NCBI RefSeq assembly: GCF_900537075.1
Contig: NZ_UNRA01000001.1
Coordinates: forward strand, 620,001 to 684,000
Reading direction: 5' to 3'
Length of the DNA stretch: 64,000 nucleotides
From: Tropicibacter sp. Alg240-R139
GTDB taxonomy: Bacteria > Pseudomonadota > Alphaproteobacteria > Rhodobacterales > Rhodobacteraceae
In this document: one piece after another, positions 30,783 through 51,314 of the stretch
Position numbering within the stretch: position 1 is the stretch's first letter
How the letters are laid out: each line of letters begins with the position of its first letter
The notes under the pieces: model-generated
The model's database searches: none
Seen by the model: the letters and a program-made list of their open reading frames with translations, nothing else
Told to the model about the DNA's origin: nothing
Made by a program: the position numbers and the translations under genes

Positions 30783-30788
30783 TGTATT

Positions 30789-30805
30789 ATTGAGCGTTCA
30801 CTTAG
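30789..30805. promoter_or_regulatory. Motif B site in the fcs/SDR divergent promoter
   Basis: ATTGAGCGTTCACTTAG contains TGANCGNTCA (30791-30800) with a CT flank on one side, matching sites at 46865, 53835, 53936 and 63377. Candidate binder: one of the TetR proteins at 52-53.7 kb (inference). Confidence 0.55.
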
Positions 30806-30899
30806 GTTCGTAAATCGAGATAATTCGCCCAAAGGGACAGCGCAAGCCGATGGCAGATGTGCCGTTGTGTACCTTGGGCCGGGATATGAGGAGTTCGAA

Positions 30900-31661: not shown

Positions 31662-31672
31662 GGACGCCAGCA

Positions 31673-34383: not shown

Positions 34384-35190
34384 CTAGTCCACGAAGGCGC
34401 GTTCCACCACAAAGGTCGACGGCTTGTTGTTGGCGCCTTCGTCCAGGCCGAACCCTTCGAGGGCGGCCTTGGTGTCCTTGAGCATTTCCATCGAACCACA
34501 GATCATGCCGCGGTCGGTTTCGGGCGAGATCCGCGGAACGCCCAAGTCCTCGAACACTTTGCCGCTGGCCATCAGGTCAGTGATCCGGCCTTTGAACGGG
34601 TAATCTTCGCGGGTGACGGTGCAGTAGTGGCGCAGGTTCTGGGCCATCTGACCGACCAGCGGATCCTCTTTTAGGACTTTGACCAGCTTTTTACCGTATT
34701 CCAGTTCGTTCACATCCCGGCAGGTGTGGGTCAGGATGACCTCGTCAAATTTTTCATAGGTTTCCGGGTCGCGGATGAGCGAGGCAAAGGGCGCGATGCC
34801 GGTGCCGGTCGAGAACATCCAGAGGCGTTTGCCAGGTAGCAGCGCATCGTTGACCAGCGTGCCGGTGGGTTTTTTGCGCATCAGCACAGTGTCGCCCACC
34901 TTGATCTTTTGCAGATGCTCGGTCAGCGGACCGTCCGGCACCTTGATCGAGTAGAATTCGATCTCTTCATCCCAGCTGGGCGAGGCGATGGAGTAGGCGC
35001 GGAACACCGGCTTTTCGGCGTTCGGCAGGCCGATCATCACAAACTCACCCGAGCGGAAGCGGAAGGTTGAAGGGCGCGTAATGCGGAATTTGAACAGCCG
35101 GTCCGTGAAATGCTCGACCGAGGTTACGGTCTGCGCAAAGACGCCAGCGGGGATCGGGAATTCGGTCTTGGGGGTTGCGTCAAGCGACAT
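34384..35190 (-). CDS. fpr: Ferredoxin-NADP reductase
   Basis: A 268-residue flavoenzyme of the bacterial FPR subclass: the FAD motif VFRAYSIASPSWDEEIEFYSI, the NADP site MFSTGTGIAPFASLIRDPE and the C-terminal DRGMICGSMEMLKDTKAALEGFGLDEG...PSTFVVERAFVD typical of alphaproteobacteria. It moves electrons between NADPH and ferredoxin. It starts 17 bases after fdxA on the same strand, so the two form an operon behind a motif A site. In this setting it could supply reduced ferredoxin to the 6-hydroxynicotinate-reductase-like enzyme (inference). Confidence 0.93.
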   Translation of the reverse strand: MSLDATPKTEFPIPAGVFAQTVTSVEHFTDRLFKFRITRPSTFRFRSGEFVMIGLPNAEKPVFRAYSIASPSWDEEIEFYSIKVPDGPLTEHLQKIKVGDTVLMRKKPTGTLVNDALLPGKRLWMFSTGTGIAPFASLIRDPETYEKFDEVILTHTCRDVNELEYGKKLVKVLKEDPLVGQMAQNLRHYCTVTREDYPFKGRITDLMASGKVFEDLGVPRISPETDRGMICGSMEMLKDTKAALEGFGLDEGANNKPSTFVVERAFVD

Positions 35191-35207: not shown

Positions 35208-35540
35208 TCAGGCGGCAGCCGGGGTTTCGGACAACAGGCCCAGTTTGCCTTCTTTGCCGTTCCAATTGTCGGCGTCGGGCAGGGGGTCTTTCCTTTCGGT
35301 GATGACCGGCCAATGATCGGCATATTTGCGGTTCATCTCGACCCAGGGTTCGGCGTCATCATCGGTGTCAGGACGGATTGCATCGGCAGGGCATTCGGGT
35401 TCGCAAACGCCACAGTCGATGCACTCATCAGGGTGGATGACCAGGGTGTTCTCACCTTCGTAAAAGCAATCCACTGGGCATACTTCGACGCAGTCGGTGA
35501 ATTTGCAGTTGATGCAGTTGTCGGTCACCACATAGGTCAT
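35208..35540 (-). CDS. fdxA: 7Fe ferredoxin (FdxA type)
   Basis: A 110-residue ferredoxin beginning [26 protein letters not shown], then [18 protein letters not shown], the 3Fe-4S plus 4Fe-4S pattern of FdxA. The ATG at 35540 follows AGGAC; the frame is open to 35633 but without motif. FdxA is usually a stand-alone housekeeping gene; here it is joined to fpr and preceded by a motif A operator 17 bases before its start, shared with the ring-reduction genes. Confidence 0.95.
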
Positions 35541-35557
35541 CGGCGCTCGTCCTTTCG

Positions 35558-35569
35558 TTTGTATACCAA
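35558..35569. promoter_or_regulatory. Motif A site upstream of fdxA-fpr
   Basis: TTTGTATACCAA fits TTNGTATRCNAA. It is 18 bases from the fdxA start, where a repressor would overlap the initiation region. Confidence 0.55.
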
Positions 35570-35659
35570 TGAATAATAGACTCGGGAAACAGCTGTCAAT
35601 ACGTTTGTTTACGTTCAATAAACCAAAGCGCATGGCGCTTGACGGATGCTATGTTTATA

Positions 35660-35671
35660 TTAGTATGCAAA
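35660..35671. promoter_or_regulatory. Motif A site upstream of the enamidase gene
   Basis: TTAGTATGCAAA, identical to the site at 30771. It is 33 bases before the enamidase ATG. The divergent intergenic region thus carries two motif A sites, one for each direction. Confidence 0.6.
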
Positions 35672-35704
35672 CAATAATTGAGCAGAAACCAATCGGAGGA
35701 ACCC

Positions 35705-36871
35705 ATGTCCGCAAAGCTTGTCATCAAGAACATCGGCCTGTTGTTGTCGGGCAAAATGGAGGAGCCGATTCTGGACGGCGACTGCTTGATTGCCATTGAT
35801 GGTAAGATTCACGAGTGGGGATATGAAAAAGATCTGGACTGCGAAGGCGCGGACACTGTTGTGGATGCCAATGGCGTCACCCTCGCGCCCGGTCTGATCG
35901 ACAGTCACATTCACCCGGTCGTGGGCGATTACACTCCGCGCCAGCACCAGATGCACTGGATCGATTCCACCCTGCATGGCGGTGTGACCACTCTGATCTC
36001 GGCCGGTGAGGTGCACATGCCCGGTCGCCCCAAGGATATCGTCGGCCTCAAGGCGATGGCGATTGCGGCGCAGCGTTGGTACGAGAACTTCCGCCCCTCG
36101 GGCATGAAAGTCCACGCTGGCGCACCGGTGATCGAACACGGTATGGTCGAAGAAGACTTCAAGGAAATGGCCGATGCTGGTGTCAAACTGTTGGGCGAGG
36201 TCGGTTTGGGCACCGTCAAGGACGGCAAAACAGCCAAACAGATGGTCGATTGGGCCCGCAAATACGGCATTCAATCCACCATCCACACCGGCGGCCCCTC
36301 GATTCCGGGTTCGGGCTTGATTGATGCGGACATGGTTCTGGAAACCGGCACGGATGTAATCGGCCACATCAACGGCGGCCATTCCGCGCTGCCCGATGAT
36401 CAGATCATGTGCCTGTGTGAAAGCTGCACCGCAGGTTTGGAGATCGTGCACAACGGCAACGAGCGCGCGGCATTGCTAACGCTGAATACCGCGCGCGAGT
36501 TGAAACAGATGGACCGGATCATTCTGGGCACTGACGGCCCGGCCGGTTCGGGTGTGCAGCCCTTGGGCATCATGCGCATGGTGGCGATGCTGTCGTCGCT
36601 CGGCGATGTCCCGGCTGAGATCGCGTTCTGCTTTGCCAACGGCAACACAGCGCGGCAGCGCGAATTGGACACGGGCCTGATCAATCAGGGCATGTGCGCC
36701 GATTTCGTTCTCATGGATCAAGCGCAGCACGCGCCGGGCAAGGACATTCTGGAATCGGTGCAACTGGGCAATCTGCCGGGCGTTGGCATGACCATCATCG
36801 ACGGCAAGGTGACGTCGGAACGCAGCCGAAACACACCGCCCGCAACGCGCCTGCCACAGGTTGTAAGCTAA
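35705..36871 (+). CDS. ena: Enamidase-like amidohydrolase (6-oxo-tetrahydronicotinate ring opening)
   Basis: A 388-residue amidohydrolase. Metal motif GLIDSHIHPVVGDYTPRQ, HGGVTTLISAGEVHMPGRPKD, the bridging-residue region GEVGLGTVKD, IHTGGPSIPGSGLID, GHINGGHSALP, LGTDGPAGSGVQPLG and the terminal SRNTPPATR closely match what I recall of the Eubacterium barkeri enamidase, which hydrolyses 1,4,5,6-tetrahydro-6-oxonicotinate to 2-formylglutarate and ammonia. GGAGG precedes the ATG at 35705. A CoA-transferase follows in the same direction. Substrate by family resemblance, not shown. Confidence 0.85.
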   Translation: MSAKLVIKNIGLLLSGKMEEPILDGDCLIAIDGKIHEWGYEKDLDCEGADTVVDANGVTLAPGLIDSHIHPVVGDYTPRQHQMHWIDSTLHGGVTTLISAGEVHMPGRPKDIVGLKAMAIAAQRWYENFRPSGMKVHAGAPVIEHGMVEEDFKEMADAGVKLLGEVGLGTVKDGKTAKQMVDWARKYGIQSTIHTGGPSIPGSGLIDADMVLETGTDVIGHINGGHSALPDDQIMCLCESCTAGLEIVHNGNERAALLTLNTARELKQMDRIILGTDGPAGSGVQPLGIMRMVAMLSSLGDVPAEIAFCFANGNTARQRELDTGLINQGMCADFVLMDQAQHAPGKDILESVQLGNLPGVGMTIIDGKVTSERSRNTPPATRLPQVVS

Positions 36872-36943
36872 GGCAAAAAACTCCCCGAACTGACCCTCAG
36901 ATGGCTTGCGCCGCCGAGGGATATTATTGAAAGGCACCTGAAT

Positions 36944-38056
36944 ATGAGCGCACCCTTGCAAGGTCTCAAAGTTGTGGAGCTGGCCCGCATTCTGGCAGGA
37001 CCATGGATCGGGCAGACGCTGGCTGATCTGGGGGCCGAGGTGCTAAAGGTCGAAAGCCCGGATGGCGACGACACCCGCAAATGGGGCCCGCCGTTCATCG
37101 AACGGGACGGGGACAAGACGGCGGCTTATTTTCATGGTGCCAACCGTGGAAAAGACAGCATCGCGCTGGATTTCGGGGATGCAGGTGATCGGGCCAAGCT
37201 TCTGGATCTGATCCGGGATGCGGATGTGTTGATTGAAAACTTCAAGGTTGGCGGTCTGAAAAAGTTCGGCCTCGATTATGAAAATGTCAAAGCGCTTAAT
37301 CCGCGCCTGATTTATGCGTCGGTCACTGGCTTTGGTCAGGACGGGCCTTATGCGCGTCGGGCGGGCTATGATTTCCTGATTCAGGGAATGAGCGGCATCA
37401 TGGATCTGACAGGTGATCCGGCGGGCGAGCCGCAAAAGATTGGTGTCGCCTTTGCCGATATCTTCACTGGGCTTTATGGCGTCATTGGCATTCAGGCGGC
37501 GCTGGCTGAGCGAGAACAGTCGGGGCTGGGACAGCACGTGGACCTGAGCCTGTTGGACTGCATGACGGGCGTTTTGGCCAATCAGGCGATGAACTTCCTT
37601 GCCTCGGGCAACTGCCCAACACGTTTGGGCAATGCGCACCCCAACATCGTGCCCTATCAGGTGTTCCCGGTGGCAGACGGTCACATCATCATCGCCTGCG
37701 GCAATGACAGGCAATATGCCACGCTCTGCGCTATTCTCGATGTGCCAGAGTTGATCGAAGACGCGCGTTTTGTGGCCAATTCCGACCGTGTTGGGAACCG
37801 TGATGCTTTGACCGAGCTGCTGACCGAAGCCTGCCTGAAATGGGGTAAATTGGACCTGTTGGCGGCGCTTGAAAAGGGCGGTGTACCGGGTGGGCCAATC
37901 AACTCGGTTGCCGAGGCGTTGAGCGATCCCCAAGTGCAGCATCGCGAGATGCAGATTGCACCCGAGGGCGTGCCCGGCCTACGCACCCCGATCCGCTTTT
38001 CGCGGTCCAAGTTGCAGCTGGACAAGGCATCGCCCAAGCGGCCTGTCAGGTCATGA
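36944..38056 (+). CDS. Class III (CaiB/BaiF) CoA-transferase
   Basis: A 370-residue protein with the family opening GLKVVELARILAGPWIGQTLADLGAEVLKVE, the catalytic Asp in RAGYDFLIQGMSGIMDLTG (Asp143), GLGQHVDLSLLDCMTGV and GNAHPNIVPYQVF. Such enzymes move CoA between carboxylates by an aspartyl-anhydride route. It is 72 bases after the enamidase gene. If the pathway runs through formylglutarate to glutarate, a glutarate CoA-transferase would be the natural role (inference). Its stop overlaps the convergent MarR stop by six bases. Confidence 0.9.
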   Translation: MSAPLQGLKVVELARILAGPWIGQTLADLGAEVLKVESPDGDDTRKWGPPFIERDGDKTAAYFHGANRGKDSIALDFGDAGDRAKLLDLIRDADVLIENFKVGGLKKFGLDYENVKALNPRLIYASVTGFGQDGPYARRAGYDFLIQGMSGIMDLTGDPAGEPQKIGVAFADIFTGLYGVIGIQAALAEREQSGLGQHVDLSLLDCMTGVLANQAMNFLASGNCPTRLGNAHPNIVPYQVFPVADGHIIIACGNDRQYATLCAILDVPELIEDARFVANSDRVGNRDALTELLTEACLKWGKLDLLAALEKGGVPGGPINSVAEALSDPQVQHREMQIAPEGVPGLRTPIRFSRSKLQLDKASPKRPVRS

Positions 38057-38479
38057 CAGTTTGCGCAGGATCTTGACCAGGTTGCGCTGTTCCGCGGCTG
38101 TCAGAGGTTTCAGCGACTCTGCCGTGATCTCGCGCCCGACTTCTTTCATTCGCGTGACCACTTCTTCGCCTTCAGAAGAGAGCGAAATCATCGTGCGGCG
38201 CTTGTCGTTGGGGTCGGGGGCCGTGACCGTCAATCCCTTTTGACGGAGCCGGTCGACCACTCCTTTGATTGTGGCCACATCCATCGCCGCCAGACGGCCA
38301 AGATGGTTTTGCGAACAGGTGCCTTGTTCTGAAATCCGGATCAGGGCCGAAAACTGCGTCGGTGTCAGGCTGTTGATGGTTTTCGATTGAAATATCGTGG
38401 CGTGGCGTTGGCTGGCCAATCGTAAGAGATACCCGACCTGGTCATCCAGTCGATAGTCTGTATCTGCCACTTCTGTCAT
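38051..38479 (-). CDS. MarR-family transcriptional regulator
   Basis: A 142-residue winged-helix protein: YRLDDQVGYLLRLASQRHATIF, then SLTPTQFSALIRISEQGTCSQNHLGRLAAMDVATIKGVVDRLRQKGL and the wing PDPNDKRRTMISLSSEG. The ATG at 38479 gives normal MarR length; the frame is open upstream to 38626. MarR proteins of aromatic pathways often sense CoA thioesters or aromatic acids and bind short palindromes. Its place inside the cluster makes it the best candidate for motif A (inference). Confidence 0.9.
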   Translation of the reverse strand: MTEVADTDYRLDDQVGYLLRLASQRHATIFQSKTINSLTPTQFSALIRISEQGTCSQNHLGRLAAMDVATIKGVVDRLRQKGLTVTAPDPNDKRRTMISLSSEGEEVVTRMKEVGREITAESLKPLTAAEQRNLVKILRKLS

Positions 38480-38750
38480 CCACTCATCCGCCAATTGAAA
38501 AACCATTAGAAGTATAACAAAAACCTGCATATCCACAACGGGTATTCCGGGCAGAGTACTACCTGGGCAGGTGTCAGAACGCCAAACAATTGCTTGAGAT
38601 TTCAGGGTTCTGATCAACGCCTTCAAAGGCCCAGTCGTAGCAGACCGAACCGGTCTTGATGATATAGGTCTGGCCCGATACGGGCCGCGCTAAGTGCGGG
38701 TTCATGTGTCAAAGCGATCGCGAGCTCCAACCATTTCAAACCGCCTTAGG

Positions 38751-39435
38751 TTAATTCGGAACAGGCGAGCGGCCTGCTTGGTCATTGACACCAAGTCCAG
38801 CAGCGCTAACGACGTAGGCGGCAATGAGCGTGGTGACCATCATAACGACCAGATTGACGAACATAACGACCAGATTGACGAATTGCAGAACAATTGAAGT
38901 CTGCGGAAAGACAAGGATGGCAAAGGCATTGAGTACAAATGTCAGAACGGCGGCCACAAAGACTTCGCCACTGATCCGCTGATCCATTGACCCACCTACA
39001 GGCTGACGGCTTTATTTGGGATATTCAGGGCACCGCCCAGATCGGTCAGAAAAGCACTCGGAACAAAGGCGGCAGAAATGCGCCATGCCTGACTGATGCC
39101 AAGCACTCCGGTCATCTCGCGGCCTTGGGGGCCGAACGGACAAGAACACCTAAACGGGTTATGTGGAAGAGAAGCCAAATGCCCAACAGAACTGAGGAAC
39201 CAATGGTGATCAGCGCCAGGTCATGTTCGGTGATGCGGATAGCGGTGGCCGGATCGCCCGTGTCATCGCGGCCAACCAATTTGAGTTGCTTGCTCTCGGT
39301 CACACTTGCAGCGTCGAGCTGTTCGATCCTCAGCTGCCAACCCTTCATTTTGAGTTTGGCAACGGTAGGCACGCGGTGGCTGTTTACCTCACCGATAGAG
39401 GCAGTGACCGCGACCTGGGCGAACTGCGGGTCTAA
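38751..39435 (-). pseudogene. Possible decayed membrane protein (DUF2975-like impression)
   Basis: Three partial frames on the minus strand follow each other: 39435-39112 (polar stretch, then the span LALITIGSSVLLGIWLLFHITRL), 39178-38996 (short, ending LNIPNKAVSL) and 38987-38751 (spans VFVAAVLTFVLNAFAILVF and a repeated FVNLVVM). Together they look like one ~200-residue four-span protein broken by frameshifts or stops. The assignment is weak. The 38480-38750 stretch shows nothing coding that I can support. Confidence 0.3.
38841..38882. repeat. 21-bp perfect tandem duplication
   Basis: Two identical 21-bp units, 38841-38861 and 38862-38882, each starting CATAACGACCAGATTGACG. On the minus strand they encode FVNLVVM twice in frame inside a membrane segment. 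Confidence 0.8.
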
Positions 39436-39483
39436 CTAATCACAGGCAGCGCTGAATGCGCGCCCAGAACGGCACGTCATCTG

Positions 39484-40068
39484 CTACCGCAGGCCGTCTT
39501 TGCCTTCGGCATCTTCGCGGGTCAAACCGCCGACGCGGGGCAGGGGGCGGCCGCTGTCGGTGACGGCGACGGCCACCATGATTTCATTGGCGCGCGGCGC
39601 ATCGTTCAGGCGCACCTCGATGCCGTCAAAGTGGCTGCGCACGTAAGCGGCGTCTTTGTGCCCAAGCGGCACGTCGAGTACCTGGCCGGGGCTGCCCATC
39701 TTCTTGGACGACGGCACCAGGGCAGCGCCCTTTTCGACCTCTTTGCGCAACGGGGCGCCAAGTTTGGGGTGCAACAGGGCCGCGGCATGTTCCAACTCGC
39801 CGTTTTCGCCGACCATGGCGGATTTGCCGTAGCTTTCGGCCTGCTCGGGTGTGATCCTTAGAGCTTCGACGCATTTCTTGCCCAGAATAGCCCCCAACTC
39901 TGCGCCCATGTCCATCAGGGGCGTCAGGTCTTCCTCATAGGTCCCAGCATAGGGATTGGCGATCACTGCTACGGCCACCGCTTTGCGGGTGGCGGGTGCG
40001 ATGTTGCGCCCCGCTTCAATATGGGTTTCTTCGACGTTTACGGCAATTTTGCGAATGTCCATTGTCAT
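39484..40068 (-). CDS. DUF1185 (AA_synth) protein, paralogue 1
   Basis: A 194-residue protein of the so-called amino acid synthesis family: IRKIAVNVEETHIEAG, VAVAVIANPYAGTYEEDL, ESYGKSAMVGENGELEHAAALLHPKLGAPLRK, LVPSSKKMGSPGQVLDVPLGHKDAAYVRSHFD and MVAVAVTDSGRPLPRVGGL. Function unknown despite the family name. Its ATG overlaps the stop of paralogue 2 by four bases. It is the last gene of the six-gene hydroxylase/reductase operon, where two DUF1185 copies in tandem suggest a heteromer or two related steps. Confidence 0.88.
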   Translation of the reverse strand: MTMDIRKIAVNVEETHIEAGRNIAPATRKAVAVAVIANPYAGTYEEDLTPLMDMGAELGAILGKKCVEALRITPEQAESYGKSAMVGENGELEHAAALLHPKLGAPLRKEVEKGAALVPSSKKMGSPGQVLDVPLGHKDAAYVRSHFDGIEVRLNDAPRANEIMVAVAVTDSGRPLPRVGGLTREDAEGKDGLR

Positions 40069-40646
40069 CTCAGACCGTCCTCTCCCTTTATGTCCCAGAC
40101 CTCGAGCCCGCCCGAGCGTGAATGAATGCGCGGTCCGGTGCTCATCACCAGCGCAAAGGCCAGTTCGTCTGCGCGCGGCGCGTCGTTGCACCCCACTTCC
40201 ATGCTGTCGAAATGCGACCGAACGTAAGAGGCGTTGACGTGGGTGATGGGCACGTCCAGACGCGCGCCAACGCCGCCGACTTTCTTGGATGAGGGTACGA
40301 TGGCGTTTGCATTGCCCAACAGTTGCCGCATGGCATAGCCGCCCGGAGCGTGCCACAGCGCGCCATGCTCCAATTCGCCGCCTTCGCCGACAAGTGAGCC
40401 TTTGCCATAGCCTTGGATGTCTTCCGGGCCGCCCAGGGTGTCGAGCAGCTTTTGCGCCATTTGGAGGCCGAGCGGTTTCAGATCTTCCATAAAGCCCTGG
40501 ATGTTTGCCTCGTACCGGCCGGCAAAGGGGTTCTTAATGATGGCCAGAACGGCGGCGCGGCGCTGCGGCGTTTCGGGGGCGGGACCGCCTTCGTGAAAGA
40601 TCTCTTCGTAAGACGCGATTGTTTTTCTTAGAATGACGTCAGGCAT
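40065..40646 (-). CDS. DUF1185 (AA_synth) protein, paralogue 2
   Basis: A 193-residue paralogue of the next gene, sharing IIKNPFAGRYEANI, YGKGSLVGEGGELEHGALWHAPGG, IVPSSKKVGGVGARLDVPITHVNASYVRSHFD and NDAPRADELAFAL. It overlaps the UPF0280 gene by eight bases upstream and paralogue 1 by four bases downstream. The conserved GE(G/N)GELEH and PSSKK motifs look like an active or binding site; no reaction is known to me. Confidence 0.88.
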   Translation of the reverse strand: MPDVILRKTIASYEEIFHEGGPAPETPQRRAAVLAIIKNPFAGRYEANIQGFMEDLKPLGLQMAQKLLDTLGGPEDIQGYGKGSLVGEGGELEHGALWHAPGGYAMRQLLGNANAIVPSSKKVGGVGARLDVPITHVNASYVRSHFDSMEVGCNDAPRADELAFALVMSTGPRIHSRSGGLEVWDIKGEDGLR

Positions 40647-41502
40647 TTAGCAGTGTCCGTTTGTTTTGTTGTCCGGTCAGACCGGAAGGTCCTGCATGAC
40701 GAGATTCGCCTTGCAGGTGAAGGGATGCCGCGCGGATCAATCCGGCGTCGCGCATTTTTTCGGCGACGATCAGACCGCTTTGCAGCGCATGGTGAATATC
40801 GGGTTGCGCAAGCGGCGCACAGTGCGTGGTGACCAACTGATCGCCCAGGTCACTGGCGTCTTGCAGATCGCTGGCGGGTCGGCGTGTGATTGCCGGGTGA
40901 TCGGGCAGGTTGACGGCGTTGGCAATCAGGGTTGCGGCCACATCAGCCAGAGCGGCCGTGCGCGCCAAAACGGTGACGCTGTCGGCAATCCCCAAGGATA
41001 GGCTGCGACCACCACGGCCAGATGTGGCAATACCGCCGATCCGATCCCGCGAGGCGACCTTGATCCGGCCCAGATCGTGGCCTTCAACCGAAGCCATGGC
41101 AGACGTGAAAGTCTCACCGGGTGCCAGGTGCAACGCAATGTCGCCACCGTTGTTTACGTAGGCGCGTCGTAGAGGAGTAGCCTGTCGCATGGCGTTCAGG
41201 ATTTCGTCGGCCACTGCGCCAGCCACCGCCGCCATGGGGGTTACAAAGGTCAGATTATGGGGCCGAACCGCGCGCGCCATACGGCGGGCAATGCGCCCGA
41301 CAAAGAGCGCACGTTCCAGTGTCATGGGCTGGCGAAGTTGATCCAGCTCGCGAACGAGTTCTTGCAGCACGGTCTGAAACCGAGCTTCTGCCGCATCAAA
41401 CGCCACCTGCCGTGCGCCGTCTGCGCCGATGATCAGGTCAATCGGACCGTGCTGCAAATGCAGTCGGGTGCCACAGGGCAATATGGCGGCGACAGGGTTC
41501 AT
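40639..41502 (-). CDS. UPF0280 / ApbE-like protein
   Basis: A 287-residue protein related to the ApbE flavin-transferase fold: LTFVTPMAAVAGAVADEILNAM, RRAYVNNGGDIALHLAPGE, GGIATSGRGGRSLSLGIADSVTVLA and ADVAATLIANAVN. ApbE attaches FMN covalently to proteins. The ATG at 41502 overlaps the reductase stop (ATGA). I recall the clostridial 6-hydroxynicotinate reductase being a flavin/Fe-S enzyme; a role in its flavin loading is a reasonable but unproven guess. Confidence 0.85.
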   Translation of the reverse strand: MNPVAAILPCGTRLHLQHGPIDLIIGADGARQVAFDAAEARFQTVLQELVRELDQLRQPMTLERALFVGRIARRMARAVRPHNLTFVTPMAAVAGAVADEILNAMRQATPLRRAYVNNGGDIALHLAPGETFTSAMASVEGHDLGRIKVASRDRIGGIATSGRGGRSLSLGIADSVTVLARTAALADVAATLIANAVNLPDHPAITRRPASDLQDASDLGDQLVTTHCAPLAQPDIHHALQSGLIVAEKMRDAGLIRAASLHLQGESRHAGPSGLTGQQNKRTLLNA

Positions 41503-42986
41503 TTGGCCCAACGATAGTTGGTGGCGGCCATCGGGTCGGGTTGGTTTTCGAACTGCGAGATTTTGCGGGTTTCATCCGACACAATCTCGGCCACCGGTTT
41601 GATCTCGTCCATGTGCCCGCCAAGGGTGCCATAGTCGCTGACGCGCATGGTGAACTCGATGGGCGCAACCAGGGCCGGGGTGGGGACATAGCCGAACGAG
41701 CCTGTCGGCATGTCGAGCACGTCCACCATCACCGTGATGCCGCCGCCGGGCCAGACATAGGCTTCGGCCCCGCCGCAAGACACAAAGGTCAGCGAGTCCT
41801 TGACGGACTTGGTCAGGCGCACGGGGTTTTCGGTCACACCGGCGCGCAAGCTACCGCCTGCGCCACCCATGAACAGCACCGAACAGACCGAGGGTTCGCA
41901 GTTCTCGGCGATCAATTCGGCGGACGCCTTGAGAGGCGCCGGGGTGTCGACCGGTTGCGGTTTCAGATCGCCGTCCAGCTCGAAATAGGCGTATTGCTCG
42001 CCGGTGGTCGACACCATTAGCAGCTTCATGCCTTCTTTGGCGAACTTTGGGCTGAAATCGCCCAGGATCTTGAGTGGATCTTCGATGTCCGTGCCGCCCC
42101 AGCCGGTGCCGGGTTCAGCGACCTGGAAGTAACGACCGGGGGTCGAGCGGCGACCGTTGATCTTGATGCCGGTTGCCTCGACGTCCAGCAGCTTGCCTGC
42201 CTGGTGTTCGGAAAGAACGCCGGTGATGTGGTCATCGACGACCACCACGTCATCCACGTGATCGACCCAGTGCTTGGCAAACATGCCGATGGTGGCCGAG
42301 CCGCAGCCCACGCGCATCAGCTTCTCTTCGACACCGTTGATGAAGGGGGCTTTGCCTGCCTCGACAATCACAGTTGTCTGGTGGGCCTCTTCGCCGATCA
42401 CCATTTCAACGGCCTCACGGTTGCAGAGCTTCAGCAGCGCATCACAGGTGACCCGGCCCTCTTTCTTGGAACCGCCGGTCAGGTGTTCAACACCGCCCAA
42501 AGACAACATCTTCGAACCGTATTCCGAGGTCATCACATGACCGATCGGCTCGCCTTCCACATAGACGACATCGCGTTCGTGGCCGATGTGACGATCTGTG
42601 TCGATCTTCACCTTGACCCCGCAGTACGAGAAGATGCCTTCGGTCACGACCGTGACCATGTCGACGCCCTGAACCTCTTGGCTGACGATAAAGGGCGCGG
42701 GCTTGTAGTCGGGGTAGGTGGTGCCAGCCCCAACCGCCGTCACGAACGGACGGTTGCCCTGCACGATGTCGCCATCCCAATCGCCGGGACCTTTGCCGTC
42801 CTTCATGAAGGGAACCAGCTTGGCCTCGTCGGTGTTTTCGATGATGGTCAGAGCATCGAGGCGCACAAGATCGCCGCCATGGTTGGCGTAGCGGTCACAG
42901 GCACCAGCCTTGCTGTCGGCGATAAAACACATCACCGGGCAAGCGTCGCAGCGGATTTTTTCGGGTTTGGCGCGGTCAGTTGCCAT
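41499..42986 (-). CDS. hnr: 6-hydroxynicotinate reductase family protein
   Basis: A 495-residue protein with a four-Cys Fe-S motif at the N-terminus (Cys13, 16, 20 and 30 in RCDACPVMCFIADSKAGAC), then VTVVTEGIFSYCGVKVKIDTD, SEYGSKMLSLGGVEHLTGG, MRVGCGSATIGMF and LFMGGAGGSLRAGVTENP. It belongs to the family of the Eubacterium barkeri enzyme that reduces 6-hydroxynicotinate to tetrahydro-6-oxonicotinate with ferredoxin. Finding it next to an oxygen-using gene set is notable. It overlaps the hydroxylase gene by 11 bases and UPF0280 by four. Confidence 0.85.
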   Translation of the reverse strand: MATDRAKPEKIRCDACPVMCFIADSKAGACDRYANHGGDLVRLDALTIIENTDEAKLVPFMKDGKGPGDWDGDIVQGNRPFVTAVGAGTTYPDYKPAPFIVSQEVQGVDMVTVVTEGIFSYCGVKVKIDTDRHIGHERDVVYVEGEPIGHVMTSEYGSKMLSLGGVEHLTGGSKKEGRVTCDALLKLCNREAVEMVIGEEAHQTTVIVEAGKAPFINGVEEKLMRVGCGSATIGMFAKHWVDHVDDVVVVDDHITGVLSEHQAGKLLDVEATGIKINGRRSTPGRYFQVAEPGTGWGGTDIEDPLKILGDFSPKFAKEGMKLLMVSTTGEQYAYFELDGDLKPQPVDTPAPLKASAELIAENCEPSVCSVLFMGGAGGSLRAGVTENPVRLTKSVKDSLTFVSCGGAEAYVWPGGGITVMVDVLDMPTGSFGYVPTPALVAPIEFTMRVSDYGTLGGHMDEIKPVAEIVSDETRKISQFENQPDPMAATNYRWAK

Positions 42987-45723
42987 TGTTCTTGTCCTTG
43001 ATTGCGGCGCGGACGCGGGACGGGGTGGCTGGCACCTGGGTCAGCCGTACGCCGCTGGCGTCTTTGATTGCGTTCAAAATGGCCGGAGCGGTGGGGATCA
43101 GAACGTGTTCACCCAGTCCCTTGGCCCCGTAGGGACCATGCGCGTCCGGTTCTTCGATAATGTGGGTTTCGATTGGGGGCATGTCGCCGATGGTCGGGAT
43201 CAAATAGTCGTGCAGGTTTTCTGTCCGGCCCGGCAGGTATTCTTCCATCAGTGCCATGCCCAAACCTTGGGCGATGCCGCCCTGAACCTGACCTTCGACC
43301 AGCATGGGGTTGATCGCCTTGCCGACATCATGGGCGGCCACAAACTTCAGCGGCTTGACGGTGCCCAGCTTGGTGTCGACCTCTACCACTACAAGATGCG
43401 CGGCGTAGCCGAATTGCGCATAGGGGATGCCCTGACCGTTTTCATCCAGCGGCCTGGTGGGCGGATCATAGGTTTCTTCGGCGCGCAGGACATACCCTTC
43501 GGCGTCAGGCGTCAGCGTGTCCAGGTCGATGACATGTTCGATGCCCTTATCGGTGATCTTGATCTGGCCGGTGCCGATGGTCAGCGCCGCCTCTTCGCTG
43601 GCATTTACACGCGCCAGGATCTGCGCCCGCATCGCCTCGCCCGATAGGCGAGACGCACTCCCGGAGACATACGTTTGACGCGAGGCTGAGGTTTTGCCAG
43701 CATCCGGCGTGACATCCGTGTCGGCCCCGATGATTTCAAGTTGGCTGACCGGAACGCCCAAAGCGGTGGCAAAGATCTGGCTGATCACGGTATTTGCGCC
43801 CTGACCAATATCCATCGCGCCCTGGTGCAACACCAGTGCGCCATCAGCCCGGATACCAGATTTGATGGTCGAGGGGTTGGGCAATGAGGTGTTGCCGCAG
43901 CCATACCAGCCGCCTGCAATGCCAACGCCGCGTTTCAGCGTGTCATTGTTGGCGTTGAAGGTCGCTACGGCCGCGCGTTCGTCATTCCACGCGGTGCGCA
44001 GAGCCTCAAAACACGGTTTAATGCCGACACCTTGCTCGAACACCTGCCCACAGACAGTTGGTATATGGTTTTCCAAAGAGTTGGTGATGCGGAAGTCCAG
44101 CCGGTCCATTCCCAACTTGTCGGCCAACTCGTCAAACAGGCTTTCCTGCGCGATGGCCGATTGGGGAACACCAAAGCCACGAAACGCGCCAGCGGGTGGG
44201 CAGTTGGTGTGGATACCTTTGGATTCTGCACGGTAGTCGGCGATCTGATAGGGGCCGGATGCGTGGACCGGAACCCGGTTTGCCACGGTTGGTCCCCAGC
44301 TGGCGTAAGCGCCGGTGTTGAAATAGCCGAAGAAGTCGAAACCCTTGATCTTGCCGTCTTTAGTCGCACCGATCTTGAGAGTGATTTCCGACGGATGCCT
44401 CTTGGTGGTCGACTGCATGGACTCCGTCCGCGAATAGCAAATGCGCACCGGCTTGCCAGTCTTGAGCGCACCAAGCGCCAGATAGGGCTGCACCGAGATG
44501 TCCAGTTTAGAGCCGAACCCGCCCCCAACGCCCGTGGGAATGATGCGAATCTGATCACGGGGCATGCCCAGAATGATCTCCATCGAATCCAGATCCATAA
44601 TTGGGGCCTGGGTGCAGGCGTGGATCTCGATCCGGCCATTCACCACTTCGGCGAACCCGGCTTCGGGTTCGATATAGCCATGTTCAACGAAACCGCTGCG
44701 GAAGCTGCTTTCGACCGTGACGTCTGCCTCGGCGATTGCGGCCTTGGCGTCGCCGCACTGGACAAATCCACCGCACATAACGTTGCCATCTCGGCCCTCA
44801 TGAAGCAGTGCGGCTTCAGGCGTCATCGCAGTGTGCACGTCTTGAGCGGCGGCGCGCTCGTCCCACTCTACCGGGAAGGAGGTCGGATCAAAGTCACGCA
44901 AGAATTCCGGCGTGGCGACAACGGCAGCCACGGCCTCTCCCCGATAGCGGGTTTCCTCTTCGGTAAAGACGGGTTGATCCATAAAAGCGGGGATCACACC
45001 AAACACGTTGCGACCCGGAACATCGGCGGCGGTCAACACCGCTTCTATCCCGGATGTGTTTGTGAAGACGTCGAGATCACCAAAAGCGAAACCAGCGCGC
45101 GGGAACGGCGAGCGGATCACCATGACCTCGAGCGTGCCCGCAGGGGCCACGTCATCGCCAAAAGCCTCAGTGCCCTGCACCTTGCCCATCCCGTCCAGGC
45201 GGCGAATGCTCTCACCTGCGTGACCGTCGTCTTGAACGGGCACGTCGGCCCGGCCGGCGGCAACCACTGCGTCGATGATCATGCGGTATCCAGTGCAACG
45301 GCAAAGGACACCGCCAAGAGCGTCCTGCACCTGTTCTTCGCTCGGCGTTTCGGTGTCACGCAACAAGGCAACGGCAGCGGTCATCATGCCTGGCGTGCAG
45401 ATCCCGCATTGCGCCGCGCCAAAGTTCTGAAAGCTCTCAGACAGGCGCTGGGTGATCTCGTCTTCGGTGGCCATACCGCCCAATGTTTCGACGGAGCGTC
45501 CAGCAGCCTGCTGCGCTGGCATCAGACAGGCGCAAACCGGATCGCCATCCACCAGAACGGTGCAGGCTCCGCAGTCACCTGCGTTACAGCCGATTTTGAC
45601 GTCGCGTGCGCCCAAACGTTCGCGCAAGGTCTCGGACAAGCGCTCGCCCGCGACTGGTGTGACGCTGACGTGATCGCCGTTAAGGATGAAATCGGTCACG
45701 GCTTCACTCACGCGCTTATCCAT
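42976..45723 (-). CDS. Molybdenum hydroxylase, fused 2Fe-2S and Mo-cofactor subunits
   Basis: A 915-residue xanthine-dehydrogenase-family enzyme in which the small iron-sulfur subunit (residues 1-155; clusters from GCNAGDCGACTVLVDGDPVC and CGICTPGMM...GVLCRCTGY) is fused to the Mo-binding large subunit (about 175-915; GVGGGFGSKLDISVQPY, PAGAFRGFGVPQSAIAQESL, and the catalytic Glu region YGAKGLGEHVLIPTAP). It lacks the FAD domain, which the preceding gene supplies. These enzymes insert an OH from water into N-heterocycles next to the ring N. GGAGG precedes the ATG at 45723. Nicotinate is the likely type of substrate given the next gene (inference). Confidence 0.9.
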   Translation of the reverse strand: MDKRVSEAVTDFILNGDHVSVTPVAGERLSETLRERLGARDVKIGCNAGDCGACTVLVDGDPVCACLMPAQQAAGRSVETLGGMATEDEITQRLSESFQNFGAAQCGICTPGMMTAAVALLRDTETPSEEQVQDALGGVLCRCTGYRMIIDAVVAAGRADVPVQDDGHAGESIRRLDGMGKVQGTEAFGDDVAPAGTLEVMVIRSPFPRAGFAFGDLDVFTNTSGIEAVLTAADVPGRNVFGVIPAFMDQPVFTEEETRYRGEAVAAVVATPEFLRDFDPTSFPVEWDERAAAQDVHTAMTPEAALLHEGRDGNVMCGGFVQCGDAKAAIAEADVTVESSFRSGFVEHGYIEPEAGFAEVVNGRIEIHACTQAPIMDLDSMEIILGMPRDQIRIIPTGVGGGFGSKLDISVQPYLALGALKTGKPVRICYSRTESMQSTTKRHPSEITLKIGATKDGKIKGFDFFGYFNTGAYASWGPTVANRVPVHASGPYQIADYRAESKGIHTNCPPAGAFRGFGVPQSAIAQESLFDELADKLGMDRLDFRITNSLENHIPTVCGQVFEQGVGIKPCFEALRTAWNDERAAVATFNANNDTLKRGVGIAGGWYGCGNTSLPNPSTIKSGIRADGALVLHQGAMDIGQGANTVISQIFATALGVPVSQLEIIGADTDVTPDAGKTSASRQTYVSGSASRLSGEAMRAQILARVNASEEAALTIGTGQIKITDKGIEHVIDLDTLTPDAEGYVLRAEETYDPPTRPLDENGQGIPYAQFGYAAHLVVVEVDTKLGTVKPLKFVAAHDVGKAINPMLVEGQVQGGIAQGLGMALMEEYLPGRTENLHDYLIPTIGDMPPIETHIIEEPDAHGPYGAKGLGEHVLIPTAPAILNAIKDASGVRLTQVPATPSRVRAAIKDKNNGN

Positions 45724-46579
45724 TTCCACCTCCGGCCTGCTTGATGGCCCGCAGGCATTGTTCGGCGACGGCGTCTAGGCGGTAATCTCCGCTGCCGCGC
45801 ACGTCGTCGATGGGAGAAAGAGAAGCAAGATGTGCTTCAGTGATCTCGACCTGATCAAGTGTCTTGCCAAGCAGATCACATTCCAGCGCGGTCAGTCGTT
45901 GTGCGACGGGCGAGCAGGCCCCAACAGCAACGCGCGCATGGTCGATGCGACCGTCTGTGTCCAGTCCGATGACAGTCGCGGTCATGGTGATAGAGATTAC
46001 CAGATACCGGCGCGAGCCCAATTTCTCAAAGGCGCTGTGCGCGTGAGCGGGCGGTTCGGGTAGAACTATAGCGGTGACAAGCTCGTCGCTGTGCAGGTCC
46101 GTCTTGCGGACGCCCATGATGAAGTCGGACAGGGCAACCATGCGGATGCCGCGGGTCGACCCGATCTCAACCTGAGCGTCCAGGGTGAGAAGCGGTGGCA
46201 CGCCGTCGGCCGCAGGCGAAGCGTTGCAGAGGTTGCCGGCAATGGTGCCTGCATTCTGAATTTGCAGGCTGCCTACTTCGCGCGCGGCGCTCTGTAGCCC
46301 GGCGAATGCGGCGGGCAGGTCGGCGCGAAAAACCTCGCTCCATCGGGTTGTCGCGCCGATGCGCCAGCCGTTCCGAGTTTGAGTGATACCCCTCAGGCCC
46401 GCAATGCGTGTTACGTCCAGAAGATCGGAATTGAGCGGCCCTTGCGGTCGCGTGGGATAAAAGTCGGTTCCCCCTGCAATGATGTCGACATTGCGCGCGC
46501 TCAGTCGGTCAAATGCATCGTCCAGGGTCGTGGGCGAAATGTAATCCAAGGTGCGAATTCCCAGTTGGAAGCGTGCCAT
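45716..46579 (-). CDS. Molybdenum hydroxylase FAD-binding subunit (CoxM type)
   Basis: A 287-residue subunit with the FAD motifs VDIIAGGTDFYP, NGWRIGATTRWSEV and QIQNAGTIAGNLCNASPAADGVPPLLTL, then the C-terminal CO-dehydrogenase flavoprotein domain (ARVAVGACSPVAQRLTALE). It passes electrons from the Fe-S clusters to the final acceptor. It is the first gene of the operon and overlaps the fused subunit gene by eight bases. A motif A site lies only five bases upstream of the ATG, so the transcript is nearly leaderless or the repressor sits on the initiation region. Confidence 0.92.
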   Translation of the reverse strand: MARFQLGIRTLDYISPTTLDDAFDRLSARNVDIIAGGTDFYPTRPQGPLNSDLLDVTRIAGLRGITQTRNGWRIGATTRWSEVFRADLPAAFAGLQSAAREVGSLQIQNAGTIAGNLCNASPAADGVPPLLTLDAQVEIGSTRGIRMVALSDFIMGVRKTDLHSDELVTAIVLPEPPAHAHSAFEKLGSRRYLVISITMTATVIGLDTDGRIDHARVAVGACSPVAQRLTALECDLLGKTLDQVEITEAHLASLSPIDDVRGSGDYRLDAVAEQCLRAIKQAGGGNG

Positions 46580-46584
46580 TGTTG

Positions 46585-46596
46585 TTTGTATGCTAA
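46585..46596. promoter_or_regulatory. Motif A site upstream of the hydroxylase/reductase operon
   Basis: TTTGTATGCTAA fits TTNGTATRCNAA. It begins six bases upstream of the FAD-subunit ATG. The rest of the 46580-46956 gap is AT-rich and holds a motif B site for the divergent importer operon. Confidence 0.6.
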
Positions 46597-46864
46597 TGAT
46601 ATTGCCGGAATTTGAATTTTGTCAATGCAAAGTTTGAAAGAGCCATGGCATTGAACTGATCGAGCAATCTCTGTCAGAGCTGTGAATTCCCCAAACAGAG
46701 TTTGAACGCACGCGCGTCGTATAGGAAAAGACTCTGAGCTAACCCCACGTCACGACTTAGCTGGTCAATTGCATTTCTTAACGGTTGCGCTGAGGATAAA
46801 TATTACGTGTTACTCATATTTTGTCAAAATAGATCGTTGACACACAAACGATTAATTCCAAAAG

Positions 46865-46880
46865 TAGTGAGCGATCACTA
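46865..46880. promoter_or_regulatory. Motif B site upstream of the ABC importer operon
   Basis: TAGTGAGCGATCACTA: perfect TAGTGA/TCACTA arms around GCGA, the most symmetric of the motif B sites. It lies 76 bases before the binding-protein ATG. A TTGACA at 46837-46842 could be the -35 element. Confidence 0.65.
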
Positions 46881-46956: not shown

Positions 46957-48204
46957 ATGAATAAGTTCAAGTCGTTGCTGGTCGGTGCGGTCGTTGCTGG
47001 TTTGGGGGCAACCTCAGCCATGGCGCAGGAGAAAATCCGAATCGCGTTTATCGACCCGCTGTCGGGGCCTTTTGCATCTACAGGCAACCAGGGGTTGTCC
47101 ATCTACCGTCACGCGGTTGATGAGTTGGTCAACAAAAGGGGCGTTTTGCTGAATGGCGCGGCCGAGTTTGAGATTGTGCCGTTCGATAACAAGATCAGCG
47201 CCAAGGAATCCCTGATTCAGTTGCAGGTCGCCATTGATCAAGGCATCCGCTTTATTGCGCAGGGTGCCTCGTCGGGGGTTGCCAACGCGCTGACAGATGC
47301 GATCAAGAAGCACAACAAGCGCAACCCGGACAGCCAGGTGATCTTCCTGAACCATTCGGCGGTTGACCCGGCGCTGACCAACGACAAGTGCAACTTCTGG
47401 CACTTCCGTTTTGACGCCAACGCCGACATCAAGATGGACGCGCTGACCGACGACATCGCCGGAAACGAGGACATCAAAAAGGTCTATATCATCGGCCAGG
47501 ACTATTCGTTCGGCAAAGCGGTTGCGGCCGCCGCTGTTCGTTTCCTGGGTGAAAAGCGCCCCGACATCGAAATCGTCGGAAACGAGTTGCACCCGATCGG
47601 CAAGGTCAAGGATTTCACTCCTTATGCGCGCAAGGTAATTGCCAGCGAAGCGGATGCCGTGATCACTGGCAACTGGGGCGGTGACATGGTTGGCCTGGGC
47701 AAGGCGGTCATGGGCGCAGGTTTTACCAAGCCGATCTACACCTACTATGGCGCCACATCGGGTATCACTGCGAACTTTGGTGACCAGGGCGACGGGATTG
47801 TGAAACTGGCAGGTGCCGGTCAGGTCAATCCGCCTCTTTCGGCAGATGCCGAAGCCTTCACCACGTCTTACTATGAGAAGTTCCCGGAACTGGATCTGGG
47901 TCAGCCGCAGATGGCAAACGTTGCCCCGATGCTGGCCGTAGCCATCAATGAAGTGGGCAATGCCGATGACGTCAAAGCCATCGCATATGCCTTGGAAGGT
48001 ATGGAGTATGACGGCATCCTGACTGGTAAGACCGTGATGCGCGAAAGCGATCACCAAGCGATCCAAACTGTGACTGTTCAGGGTCAAACCAGCGAAGGTT
48101 TGACTTTTGACTATGACAACTCGGGCCACGGCATGATTGCCGAGACCATCGTCGAGCTGGCCTCGGCAGATGCGCCAACCACCTGCAAGATGAAGCGCCC
48201 GTAA
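46957..48204 (+). CDS. Branched-chain-type ABC importer, periplasmic binding protein
   Basis: A 415-residue Leu/Ile/Val-binding-family protein with a signal peptide (LLVGAVVAGLGATSAMAQ, cut after AMA), then IRIAFIDPLSGPFASTGNQG, the ligand region RFIAQGASSGVANAL and VYIIGQDYSFGKAVAAAA. This family also carries aromatic acids, urea and amides, so the ligand need not be an amino acid; its place beside the hydroxylase operon suggests an N-heterocyclic acid. GGGAGGG precedes the ATG. A hairpin between it and the permease probably keeps its expression higher. Confidence 0.92.
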   Translation: MNKFKSLLVGAVVAGLGATSAMAQEKIRIAFIDPLSGPFASTGNQGLSIYRHAVDELVNKRGVLLNGAAEFEIVPFDNKISAKESLIQLQVAIDQGIRFIAQGASSGVANALTDAIKKHNKRNPDSQVIFLNHSAVDPALTNDKCNFWHFRFDANADIKMDALTDDIAGNEDIKKVYIIGQDYSFGKAVAAAAVRFLGEKRPDIEIVGNELHPIGKVKDFTPYARKVIASEADAVITGNWGGDMVGLGKAVMGAGFTKPIYTYYGATSGITANFGDQGDGIVKLAGAGQVNPPLSADAEAFTTSYYEKFPELDLGQPQMANVAPMLAVAINEVGNADDVKAIAYALEGMEYDGILTGKTVMRESDHQAIQTVTVQGQTSEGLTFDYDNSGHGMIAETIVELASADAPTTCKMKRP

Positions 48205-48234
48205 CGCTTCGTCATCGCATTAAAGGTTGCCAGA

Positions 48235-48265
48235 TTGTCCCGTCAGGGGTTTCCTGACGGGACAA
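48235..48265 (+). terminator. Intercistronic hairpin between binding-protein and permease genes
   Basis: A perfect 13-bp stem (TTGTCCCGTCAGG, 48235-48247, with 48253-48265) and five-base loop, 30 bases after the binding-protein stop and with no strong T tract. Likely a partial terminator or RNA-stabilising hairpin, as is common after binding-protein genes. Confidence 0.65.
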
Positions 48266-48306
48266 GACCGACAAAAAACGAAAATCTCATCAGGGAGCCG
48301 ACAACG

Positions 48307-49263
48307 ATGGCATTGTTCCTCGTTAATATTTTGGATGGCTTGGTTACGGGGCTATTGCTGTTCATGCTGTGCAGTGGCCTTACGCTCATCTTTTCGATGA
48401 TGGGTGTTCTGAACTTTGCGCACGCCAGTTTCTACATGCTGGGGGCGTATTTCGCCTACCAGATCAGCACTATAACCGGGTTTTGGATGGGCCTTCTGGT
48501 CGCTCCGATCATTGTTGGCGTCTTTGGCGCCGCCATCGAGCGATACGGGCTTAGGCGCGTTCATAAATACGGCCATGTGCCCGAACTGATCTTTACTTTT
48601 GGTCTGGCGTTGCTAATCGAAGAGGTGATCCAGTTCTTCTGGGGCAAAAGCCAAATGGCTTACTCTGAGCCCGAGGCACTGAATTTTGCGGCCTTTGCAA
48701 TCGCTGGAAACTCTTTCCCAGCTTACAAAGTCTTCATGATCTTTGTCGCGATGGGGTTGTTCCTGACGCTGCTTTACATCCTGACCAAGACCCGCATCGG
48801 CATGACCATTCAGGCTGCGCTTAGCTATCCTGAAACCGTACAAAACCTAGGCCACAATGTGCCGCTGGTGTTCATGGGGGTCTTTGGTGTGGGAACCGCA
48901 ATGGCCGGTCTGGCCGGGGTGATTGCCGGGCCGGTTCTGGGGACGTTCCCAGGTATGGCGGTTCAGTTGGGTTCGATCGTCTTCGTGACCATCGTCATTG
49001 GTGGTCTGGGTTCTCTCTGGGGCGCATTGGTTGCCTCGTTGATCATCGGTTGGCTGCAGACCTTTGCCGCCGCTTACAACGTCGCGATGGAGGACATCCT
49101 GACAGCGGTCGGCTTTACCAAACCTGAAAACATTTGGGACCATCCGCTGCAGGATCTTTGGACCCTGACCTTGCCGCAGATCGGGCCGATCCTGCCGTAT
49201 CTGCTAATGGTCTTTGTCCTTGTGCTGCGTCCGCAGGGCCTGATGGGGAAACGTGAGACATGA
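48307..49263 (+). CDS. livH: Branched-chain-type ABC importer permease (LivH family)
   Basis: A 318-residue polytopic protein: LDGLVTGLLLFMLCSGLTLIFSMMGVLNFAHASFYMLGAYFAYQ (the LivH opening), several further spans, TRIGMTIQAALSYPETVQNLGHNV (EAA-like loop) and GGLGSLWGALVASLIIGWLQTF. GGGAG precedes the ATG at 48307. It overlaps livM by four bases. Confidence 0.93.
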   Translation: MALFLVNILDGLVTGLLLFMLCSGLTLIFSMMGVLNFAHASFYMLGAYFAYQISTITGFWMGLLVAPIIVGVFGAAIERYGLRRVHKYGHVPELIFTFGLALLIEEVIQFFWGKSQMAYSEPEALNFAAFAIAGNSFPAYKVFMIFVAMGLFLTLLYILTKTRIGMTIQAALSYPETVQNLGHNVPLVFMGVFGVGTAMAGLAGVIAGPVLGTFPGMAVQLGSIVFVTIVIGGLGSLWGALVASLIIGWLQTFAAAYNVAMEDILTAVGFTKPENIWDHPLQDLWTLTLPQIGPILPYLLMVFVLVLRPQGLMGKRET

Positions 49264-51313: not shown

Positions 51314-51314
51314 A

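What the first reader, a model, noticed from the sequence alone, without database searches (positions are those of the whole stretch)
35541..46600. Reductive N-heterocycle pathway set in an apparently aerobic marine bacterium
Seen: a Mo hydroxylase, a 6-hydroxynicotinate-reductase-family protein and an enamidase-like protein within 11 kb, with a CoA-transferase, and operators shared between them. Known: this enzyme trio defines the fermentative nicotinate pathway of Eubacterium barkeri, and a reductive nicotinate route ending in glutarate has been described in Azorhizobium. Inference: this roseobacter hydroxylates a pyridine carboxylate, reduces the ring, opens it and activates the dicarboxylate as a CoA ester, instead of the usual maleamate route. 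The genes for 2-formylglutarate reduction and methyleneglutarate mutase of the clostridial route are not in this window, so the lower part must differ.
Basis: partly seen in the sequence, partly recalled or inferred. Interest (0 to 1): 0.85.

Follow-up and report, generated by a model that had tools for sequence, protein, structure and literature searches.

The report
Roseobacter reductive nicotinate degradation gene cluster
This marine bacterium very probably breaks down vitamin B3 by first reducing its ring, a route known from soil bacteria, and comparing many relatives suggests that they open the reduced ring with either of two unrelated, interchangeable enzymes.

Summary
Window 34.4-46.6 kb encodes an XDH-family Mo hydroxylase, a 6-hydroxynicotinate-reductase (HNR) family protein, an enamidase 44% identical to 2VUN with the same metal-site residues, and a glutarate-type CoA-transferase. 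The shared operator is real: two exact sites (0.02 expected) and an imperfect third. The regulator is a BpsR relative keeping 3 of 4 residues that bind 6-hydroxynicotinate. Best reading: reductive nicotinate catabolism through tetrahydro-oxonicotinate, 2-formylglutarate and glutarate, with electrons from a co-regulated ferredoxin and reductase. The route is not new: it is published for aerobic Azorhizobium and Bradyrhizobiaceae, and HNR occurs in 68 of 385 sampled genomes of the class. New from the comparison: HNR genomes split 30 enamidase, 36 HyuAB (ATP-lactamase-like), 0 both, 2 neither (70% and 86% complete). The type changes at least seven times on the HNR tree and both types carry the operator, so the modules probably do one job, though Hyu-type regulators differ at one ligand residue in 10 of 18. 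A UPF0280 protein of ApbE-like fold stands beside HNR in 109 of 118 loci; ApbE's catalytic His and target motif are absent and its role is open. No function was tested experimentally.

The parts
34384..35190 (-). ferredoxin--NADP reductase (second copy of the genome)
   Evidence: best NCBIfam hit PRK10926 ferredoxin--NADP(+) reductase, E 4.9e-38, 131 of the 390 bits needed; the other genomic copy is 62% identical
35208..35540 (-). FdxA-like ferredoxin, probable electron carrier for HNR
   Evidence: cysteine motifs seen in the translation (name recalled); operator just upstream; orthologs with the operator in relatives
35557..35572 (+). operator before ferredoxin/FNR
   Evidence: exact match to GTTTGTATRCYAATGA
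35659..35674 (-). imperfect operator before enamidase
   Evidence: 14 of 16 alike to the opposite strand of the site at 46584
35705..36871 (+). enamidase
   Evidence: 2VUN, E 4.3e-107, 44% identity, same metal-site residues
36944..38056 (+). class III CoA-transferase, glutarate type
   Evidence: SucGlutTfsCaiB 511 bits, cut-off 750
38051..38479 (-). MarR regulator, BpsR-like
   Evidence: 2NNN E 8.6e-37, 6PCP E 7e-24; Y, R and H of the 6HNA site kept, one H is Y
39484..40068 (-). DUF1185 (AA_synth) paralog b, tied to enamidase clusters
   Evidence: PF06684 E 1.4e-71; in 46 of 50 enamidase-type and 4 of 31 Hyu-type loci
40065..40646 (-). DUF1185 (AA_synth) paralog a
   Evidence: 3BYQ E 1.4e-57; PF06684 over cut-off
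40639..41502 (-). UPF0280 (name recalled; DUF375), ApbE-like fold
   Evidence: PRK04334.1-2 over cut-off; AlphaFold pLDDT 92 and Foldseek to 2O34, then ApbE/FmnB
41499..42986 (-). HNR-family reductase
   Evidence: 26 plasmid relatives, 17 of them annotated 6-hydroxynicotinate reductase; CxxCxxxCx9C and nine cysteines at least 98% conserved
42976..45729 (-). Mo hydroxylase, Fe-S and Mo domains fused
45716..46579 (-). Mo hydroxylase FAD subunit
   Evidence: FAD_binding_5 and CO_deh_flav_C
46584..46599 (+). operator before the Mo hydroxylase-HNR operon
   Evidence: exact match
46957..52016 (+). branched-chain-type ABC transporter (binding protein, two permeases, two ATPases), candidate uptake system
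   Evidence: names from reading the translations; binding-protein ortholog at the same place in 11 of 58 loci

Best explanation
The cluster encodes reductive nicotinate (or a very close analogue) catabolism. The Mo hydroxylase makes the 6-hydroxy compound. HNR reduces the ring to 1,4,5,6-tetrahydro-6-oxonicotinate with electrons passed from NADPH by the co-regulated FNR and ferredoxin. Enamidase opens the ring to 2-formylglutarate and ammonia. Loss of CO2 and oxidation give glutarate, the CoA-transferase makes glutaryl-CoA, and a glutaryl-CoA dehydrogenase elsewhere in the genome leads to crotonyl-CoA. A BpsR-like MarR repressor, released by the 6-hydroxy intermediate, controls the three operons through a shared palindromic site. 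Homology, gene order, the operator and the regulator residues are shown; every catalytic step, the electron route and the inducer are inferred.
For: Enamidase homology and metal-site identity. HNR-enamidase co-occurrence: 30 of 31 enamidase genomes have HNR among 385. Six core genes in the same order and strand in 43 of 58 loci. Operator: 114 sites in 118 loci against 0.33 expected, placed before hydroxylase, ferredoxin, FNR, HNR and ring-opening genes, twice before NicA-type genes. The regulator keeps Y, R and H of the BpsR 6HNA site. The same kind of cluster was described for a 6-hydroxynicotinate degrader (PMC3511419, passages). Glutaryl-CoA dehydrogenase homolog in the genome and, in L027 and L160, beside HNR with a CoA-transferase.
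Against: No E. barkeri or Azorhizobium HNR sequence was at hand to compare directly. BpsR His23 is Tyr here. The Mo hydroxylase is nearer to aldehyde oxidoreductase structures (356 bits) than to the nicotinate dehydrogenase chain 3HRD (256 bits, a shorter chain). The CoA-transferase is below its model's cut-off. I saw no aldehyde dehydrogenase in the cluster; the best genomic match to the one in L027 is 55% identical. Enamidase is in the fetched stretch of only 27 of the 58 loci, and ferredoxin and FNR in 16 each. Nothing was tested in a cell.
Confidence: 0.8

Rival explanations
1. Same chemistry on another pyridine: an N-methylated betaine (trigonelline or homarine) or a picolinate or isonicotinate, with enamidase releasing methylamine or ammonia.
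For: Marine setting. The residue that contacts the ring N in BpsR (His32) is Ala or Asn in 10 of 18 Hyu-type regulators (6 of 14 when typed by the fetched stretch alone). A DUF1185 protein, TgnF, is named from trigonelline degradation (PMC7913881, passage and reference title read).
Against: In enamidase-type loci His32 is kept in 37 of 38 regulators, and in the window. Operator before NicA-type nicotinate dehydrogenase genes in HNR clusters, 2 sites. Enamidase is close to the 2VUN enzyme.
Confidence: 0.13
2. A purine or other xanthine-dehydrogenase-type pathway in which the HNR-like protein has an unrelated role.
For: The Mo hydroxylase's best NCBIfam model is selenium-dependent xanthine dehydrogenase (545 of the 830 bits needed).
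Against: I recognised no purine enzyme in the set; HNR, enamidase and the 6HNA-type regulator travel together.
Confidence: 0.04

Closest known systems
Azorhizobium and Bradyrhizobiaceae reductive nicotinate cluster (PMC3511419, passages read)
   Different: Some unnamed enamidase-type genomes of the class carry NicAB-type dehydrogenase genes in place of the window's fused Mo hydroxylase (L130, L164); the figure of the paper could not be seen, so its exact gene list was not compared
Eubacterium barkeri nicotinate fermentation (Alhapel 2006; paper not held, recalled)
   Same: Mo hydroxylase, HNR, enamidase
   Different: A CoA-transferase and a genomic glutaryl-CoA dehydrogenase homolog point to glutarate; the Mo subunit is one chain, not two (recalled).
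BpsR of Bordetella, 6-hydroxynicotinate sensor (PMC6837509, passages read)
   Same: MarR family, 3 of 4 ligand residues
   Different: His23 is Tyr; a reductive, not the oxidative, pathway is controlled
COG2122 protein of Desulfovibrio (PMC5764234, passages read), for UPF0280
   Same: 2O34 of D. vulgaris is the nearest structure (that it is COG2122 is recalled); there too it works with an enzyme and a ferredoxin-domain protein, and is distantly related to ApbE without its flavin-binding region
   Different: There it serves DUF39-dependent homocysteine synthesis; the DUF39 family (PF01837) was found in 0 of 299 genomes of the window's phylum
ATP-dependent lactamases OplAB and CapAB (PMC11033972, passages read), for the Hyu-type clusters elsewhere
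   Same: HyuA of these clusters matches N-methylhydantoinase and 5-oxoprolinase structures; OplAB hydrolyses the six-membered valerolactam
   Different: Stand in HNR clusters in place of enamidase; activity untested

Membership tests
reductive nicotinate pathway | enamidase with its bimetal site | tested here: met
   five of the six positions are in the invariant list of 24 sequences and all six agree with 2VUN; which residues bind metal is recalled
reductive nicotinate pathway | 6-hydroxynicotinate reductase ortholog | tested here: inconclusive
   named so in 17 of 26 plasmid matches, no curated model, reference sequence not at hand
reductive nicotinate pathway | Mo hydroxylase acting on nicotinate | tested here: inconclusive
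   family met, substrate not readable from sequence
reductive nicotinate pathway | tetrahydro-6-oxonicotinate as intermediate | not testable with these tools
   needs metabolite analysis
aerobic glutarate variant | genes for glutaryl-CoA formation and dehydrogenation | tested here: met
   by homology only: CoA-transferase below its model's cut-off; genomic homolog 77% identical to L027's glutaryl-CoA-dehydrogenase-like protein
BpsR-type regulator | Tyr15, His23, Arg26, His32 | tested here: inconclusive
   Y, Y, R, H: 3 of 4; Tyr is the commonest state at that place in enamidase-type loci, 21 of 38
ApbE flavin transferase (UPF0280) | ApbE fold | tested here: met
   Foldseek probability 1.00, E 1.1e-5 to FmnB, TM-scores of 0.40-0.53 to ApbE/FmnB among the 18 best rows
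ApbE flavin transferase (UPF0280) | catalytic His and D-x-x-[ST]-G-A-[ST] target motif | tested here: not met
   no invariant His in 48 rows; the place of the ApbE His holds Arg166 or Leu170 by two alignments, Arg166 in 47 of 48; motif in 0 of 41 HNR rows (features from PMC12052999)

The most novel reading that the evidence does not exclude
In HNR-bearing bacteria of this class the reduced nicotinate ring is opened by either of two unrelated, mutually exclusive modules: enamidase with its own DUF1185 partner, or an ATP-dependent HyuAB lactamase. They have replaced each other repeatedly, with at least seven changes on the HNR tree, while hydroxylase, HNR, UPF0280, regulator and operator stayed. 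UPF0280 would be a dedicated maturase of HNR, perhaps one that couples its flavin by chemistry unlike that of ApbE.
Probability: 0.4. Interest if true: 0.65.

Novelty: new member of a known kind. Interest (0 to 1): 0.45.

Why it matters
It places a ring-reducing nicotinate route in marine roseobacters, gives testable roles to families of unknown or uncertain function (UPF0280, DUF1185, the cluster HyuAB), and offers a defined operator and regulator with which to read the pathway from genomes. If the two ring-opening modules are equivalent, it is a clean case of repeated replacement of one enzyme by an unrelated, ATP-consuming one inside an otherwise fixed pathway.

Tried and rejected
The HNR structure model was poor (mean pLDDT 55) and its PDB search gave no match with E at or below 0.001; a profile of 41 HNR rows found no PDB chain better than E 1.2. 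A profile comparison of UPF0280 with this genome's own ApbE was not significant by hhalign (probability 0.7%, E 0.076), and UPF0280 matches no Pfam model up to E 10, so the relation to ApbE rests on the fold. The idea that HNR is a relative of DUF39, because both go with a COG2122-type protein and a ferredoxin, found no support: no such Pfam match in any of 41 HNR rows up to E 10; a direct comparison was not made. Readings of different substrates for the two modules were weighed: the repeated changes (9 by parsimony, at least 7 forced by supported branches) and the absence of genomes with both (0 of 68) speak for one role; the Ala or Asn at the ring-N contact of 10 of 18 Hyu-type regulators speaks against it. 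Because that count rose on re-check from 6 of 14, and because COG2122 has another described role, I lowered the novel case from 0.45 to 0.4. Stop codons reported inside some HNR matches lie at the natural gene ends in the three looked at. A literature search on homarine, Ruegeria and catabolism (9 papers, listing seen) showed nothing on this cluster.

Limits of the counts. The enamidase threshold (640 bits or more; next score 341) and the HyuA threshold (55% identity or more; highest in an enamidase genome 46%) were set after the scores were seen. One more genome, G127, has a HyuA piece of 66% identity cut off by a contig end and no HNR; I left it out of the 41, so 42 would be the strict count, and five others without HNR lie inside the 41. 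HyuA was scored for at most three candidates a genome. Fisher values treat genomes as independent. 37 of the 118 have neither module in what was searched and were left out of the two-type tree; 2 of the 81 typed loci were dropped there because their HNR match covers under 90%. The operator expectation is from three Markov resamplings of each locus, and the looser pattern was derived from sites already seen.

Full report
Observation. HNR itself matches no Pfam or NCBIfam model at E 0.001 and no PDB chain, but 26 plasmid records carry relatives covering at least 80% of it, 17 of them annotated 6-hydroxynicotinate reductase, in Sulfitobacter, Rhizobium and others. Enamidase is 44% identical over 384 residues to 2VUN, with H68, H70, E165, H194, H221 and D277 the same. 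The genome has one HNR.

The set is larger than listed. In 43 of 58 loci fetched from public genomes the six genes FAD subunit, Mo hydroxylase, HNR, UPF0280, DUF1185 a, DUF1185 b stand in this order on one strand; a MarR gene is in the stretch of 41, enamidase of 27, ferredoxin of 16 and FNR of 16 (stretches are at most about 21 kb). In the window the ferredoxin and FNR genes stand beside enamidase. FNR is a second copy, 62% identical to the other in this genome.

Regulation. The operator claim is right. Two exact copies of GTTTGTATRCYAATGA stand before ferredoxin/FNR and before the hydroxylase operon, and a third, 14 of 16 alike, before enamidase. With the looser form GTTNGTATRCNAAYGA and one mismatch, 118 loci hold 114 sites against 0.33 expected. 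In enamidase-type loci 20 of 58 sites lie before the FAD subunit, 13 before enamidase, 11 before ferredoxin and 3 before FNR; in Hyu-type loci 5 of 22 lie before HyuA, 4 before HNR, 4 before the FAD subunit, 2 before FNR and 1 before NicA; 15 of the 114 had no scored gene near. The MarR protein is a relative of 2NNN (E 8.6e-37) and of BpsR, 6PCP (E 7e-24). Of the four BpsR residues that hold 6-hydroxynicotinate (PMC6837509, passages) it keeps three; the fourth, His23, is Tyr. Over 80 MarR matches the Tyr and Arg are kept in 80 of 80; the ring-N contact His is kept in 37 of 38 enamidase-type, 24 of 24 untyped and 8 of 18 Hyu-type matches. The inducer here is therefore probably a 6-oxo pyridine carboxylate, which is inference.

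Lower pathway. The CoA-transferase belongs with the succinate--glutarate type, below the model's cut-off. In L027 and L160 such a gene stands beside an acyl-CoA dehydrogenase and the HNR cluster. The L027 dehydrogenase is nearest to 4W9U, an acyl-CoA dehydrogenase (E 2e-220), and then to glutaryl-CoA dehydrogenases (E 2.5e-178 to 3GNC), and this genome holds a 77% identical copy 0.7 Mb away on the same contig. An aldehyde dehydrogenase beside FNR in L027 has a 55% identical best match in this genome. Glutarate agrees with what PMC3511419 reports for Azorhizobium (passage).

Distribution. HNR is found in 68 of 385 genomes of the class and in 32 of 398 of the phylum sample, which share some genomes. 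Enamidase orthologs are in 31 of the 385, 30 of them with HNR. HyuA at 55% identity or more to the Neorhizobium cluster gene is in 41 (42 with a truncated one), 36 of them with HNR. Inside the 68 HNR genomes the split is 30 enamidase, 36 HyuA, 0 both and 2 neither; those two are 70% and 86% complete. On a tree of 80 HNR proteins of known type the label changes 9 times, at least 7 forced by supported branches, for instance between L144 and L151, between L160 and L147/L148/L152, and between L165 and L131. DUF1185 b follows enamidase (46 of 50 loci against 4 of 31). Two Hyu-type loci (L062, L165) also carry NicA/NicB genes, annotated as nicotinate dehydrogenase in L062. I take this as replacement within one pathway. 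OplAB of the same family hydrolyses delta-valerolactam with ATP (PMC11033972, passages), so a six-membered lactam such as the reduced nicotinate ring is plausible. This is inference, and the regulator residue just named is evidence against it. A literature search with nicotinate, hydantoinase, hydroxynicotinate and oxoprolinase (83 papers holding two or more terms, 20 listed) showed none on this link by title and abstract start.

UPF0280 (name recalled). It lies within 250 bases of HNR in 109 of 118 loci; of the other nine, four have it absent from the fetched stretch and five have it further off. Its model (pLDDT 92) matches DVU1097 (2O34) and then the flavin transferases ApbE and FmnB. E. 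barkeri HNR is recalled to hold covalent flavin (Alhapel 2006, not held). Against a simple ApbE role: no invariant His, Arg166 in 47 of 48 rows, and the flavinylation motif absent in 41 of 41 HNR rows, though Ser161, Asp187 and Thr191 are invariant. The Desulfovibrio COG2122 protein, which I recall to be the same family, is required for DUF39-dependent homocysteine synthesis, and its authors note that its likeness to ApbE does not reach the flavin-binding region (PMC5764234, passages). DUF39 itself was found in 0 of 299 genomes of the window's phylum, so here the partner is more likely HNR. No paper of the library holds the word UPF0280; of 34 papers holding DUF375, PRK04334, COG2122 or UPF0280, 15 were listed and one read in passages.

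Verdict. The window is a well-formed member of a published kind of pathway in a marine bacterium of the Ruegeria neighbourhood (nearest HNR relatives Falsiruegeria, Tropicibacter and Ruegeria). The new material is the two-module ring opening, the widely kept operator, and the UPF0280 link.

Noticed in passing
window 38504-39500: Scattered pieces about 75% identical to the LivHMGF transporter region that stands between DUF1185 b and the MarR gene in L002 (13.4-18.9 kb): apparently a decayed second transporter.
   Followed up: partly
window 46865-46880: Near-perfect palindrome TAGTGAGCGATCACTA before the transporter operon, a candidate site for the TetR-type regulator at 52089-52679.
   Followed up: no
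G000:C2:979225-979755 (L065, L180): Third DUF1185 gene of this genome, away from its only HNR.
   Followed up: no
L162 (8824-10205): The HNR gene of this Hyu-type genome is split into two frames.
   Followed up: partly
window 27220-32443: Neighbouring genes read as an acyl-CoA dehydrogenase, an AMP-forming ligase, an SDR and an enoyl-CoA hydratase (names from reading the translations); link to the nicotinate genes unknown.
   Followed up: no
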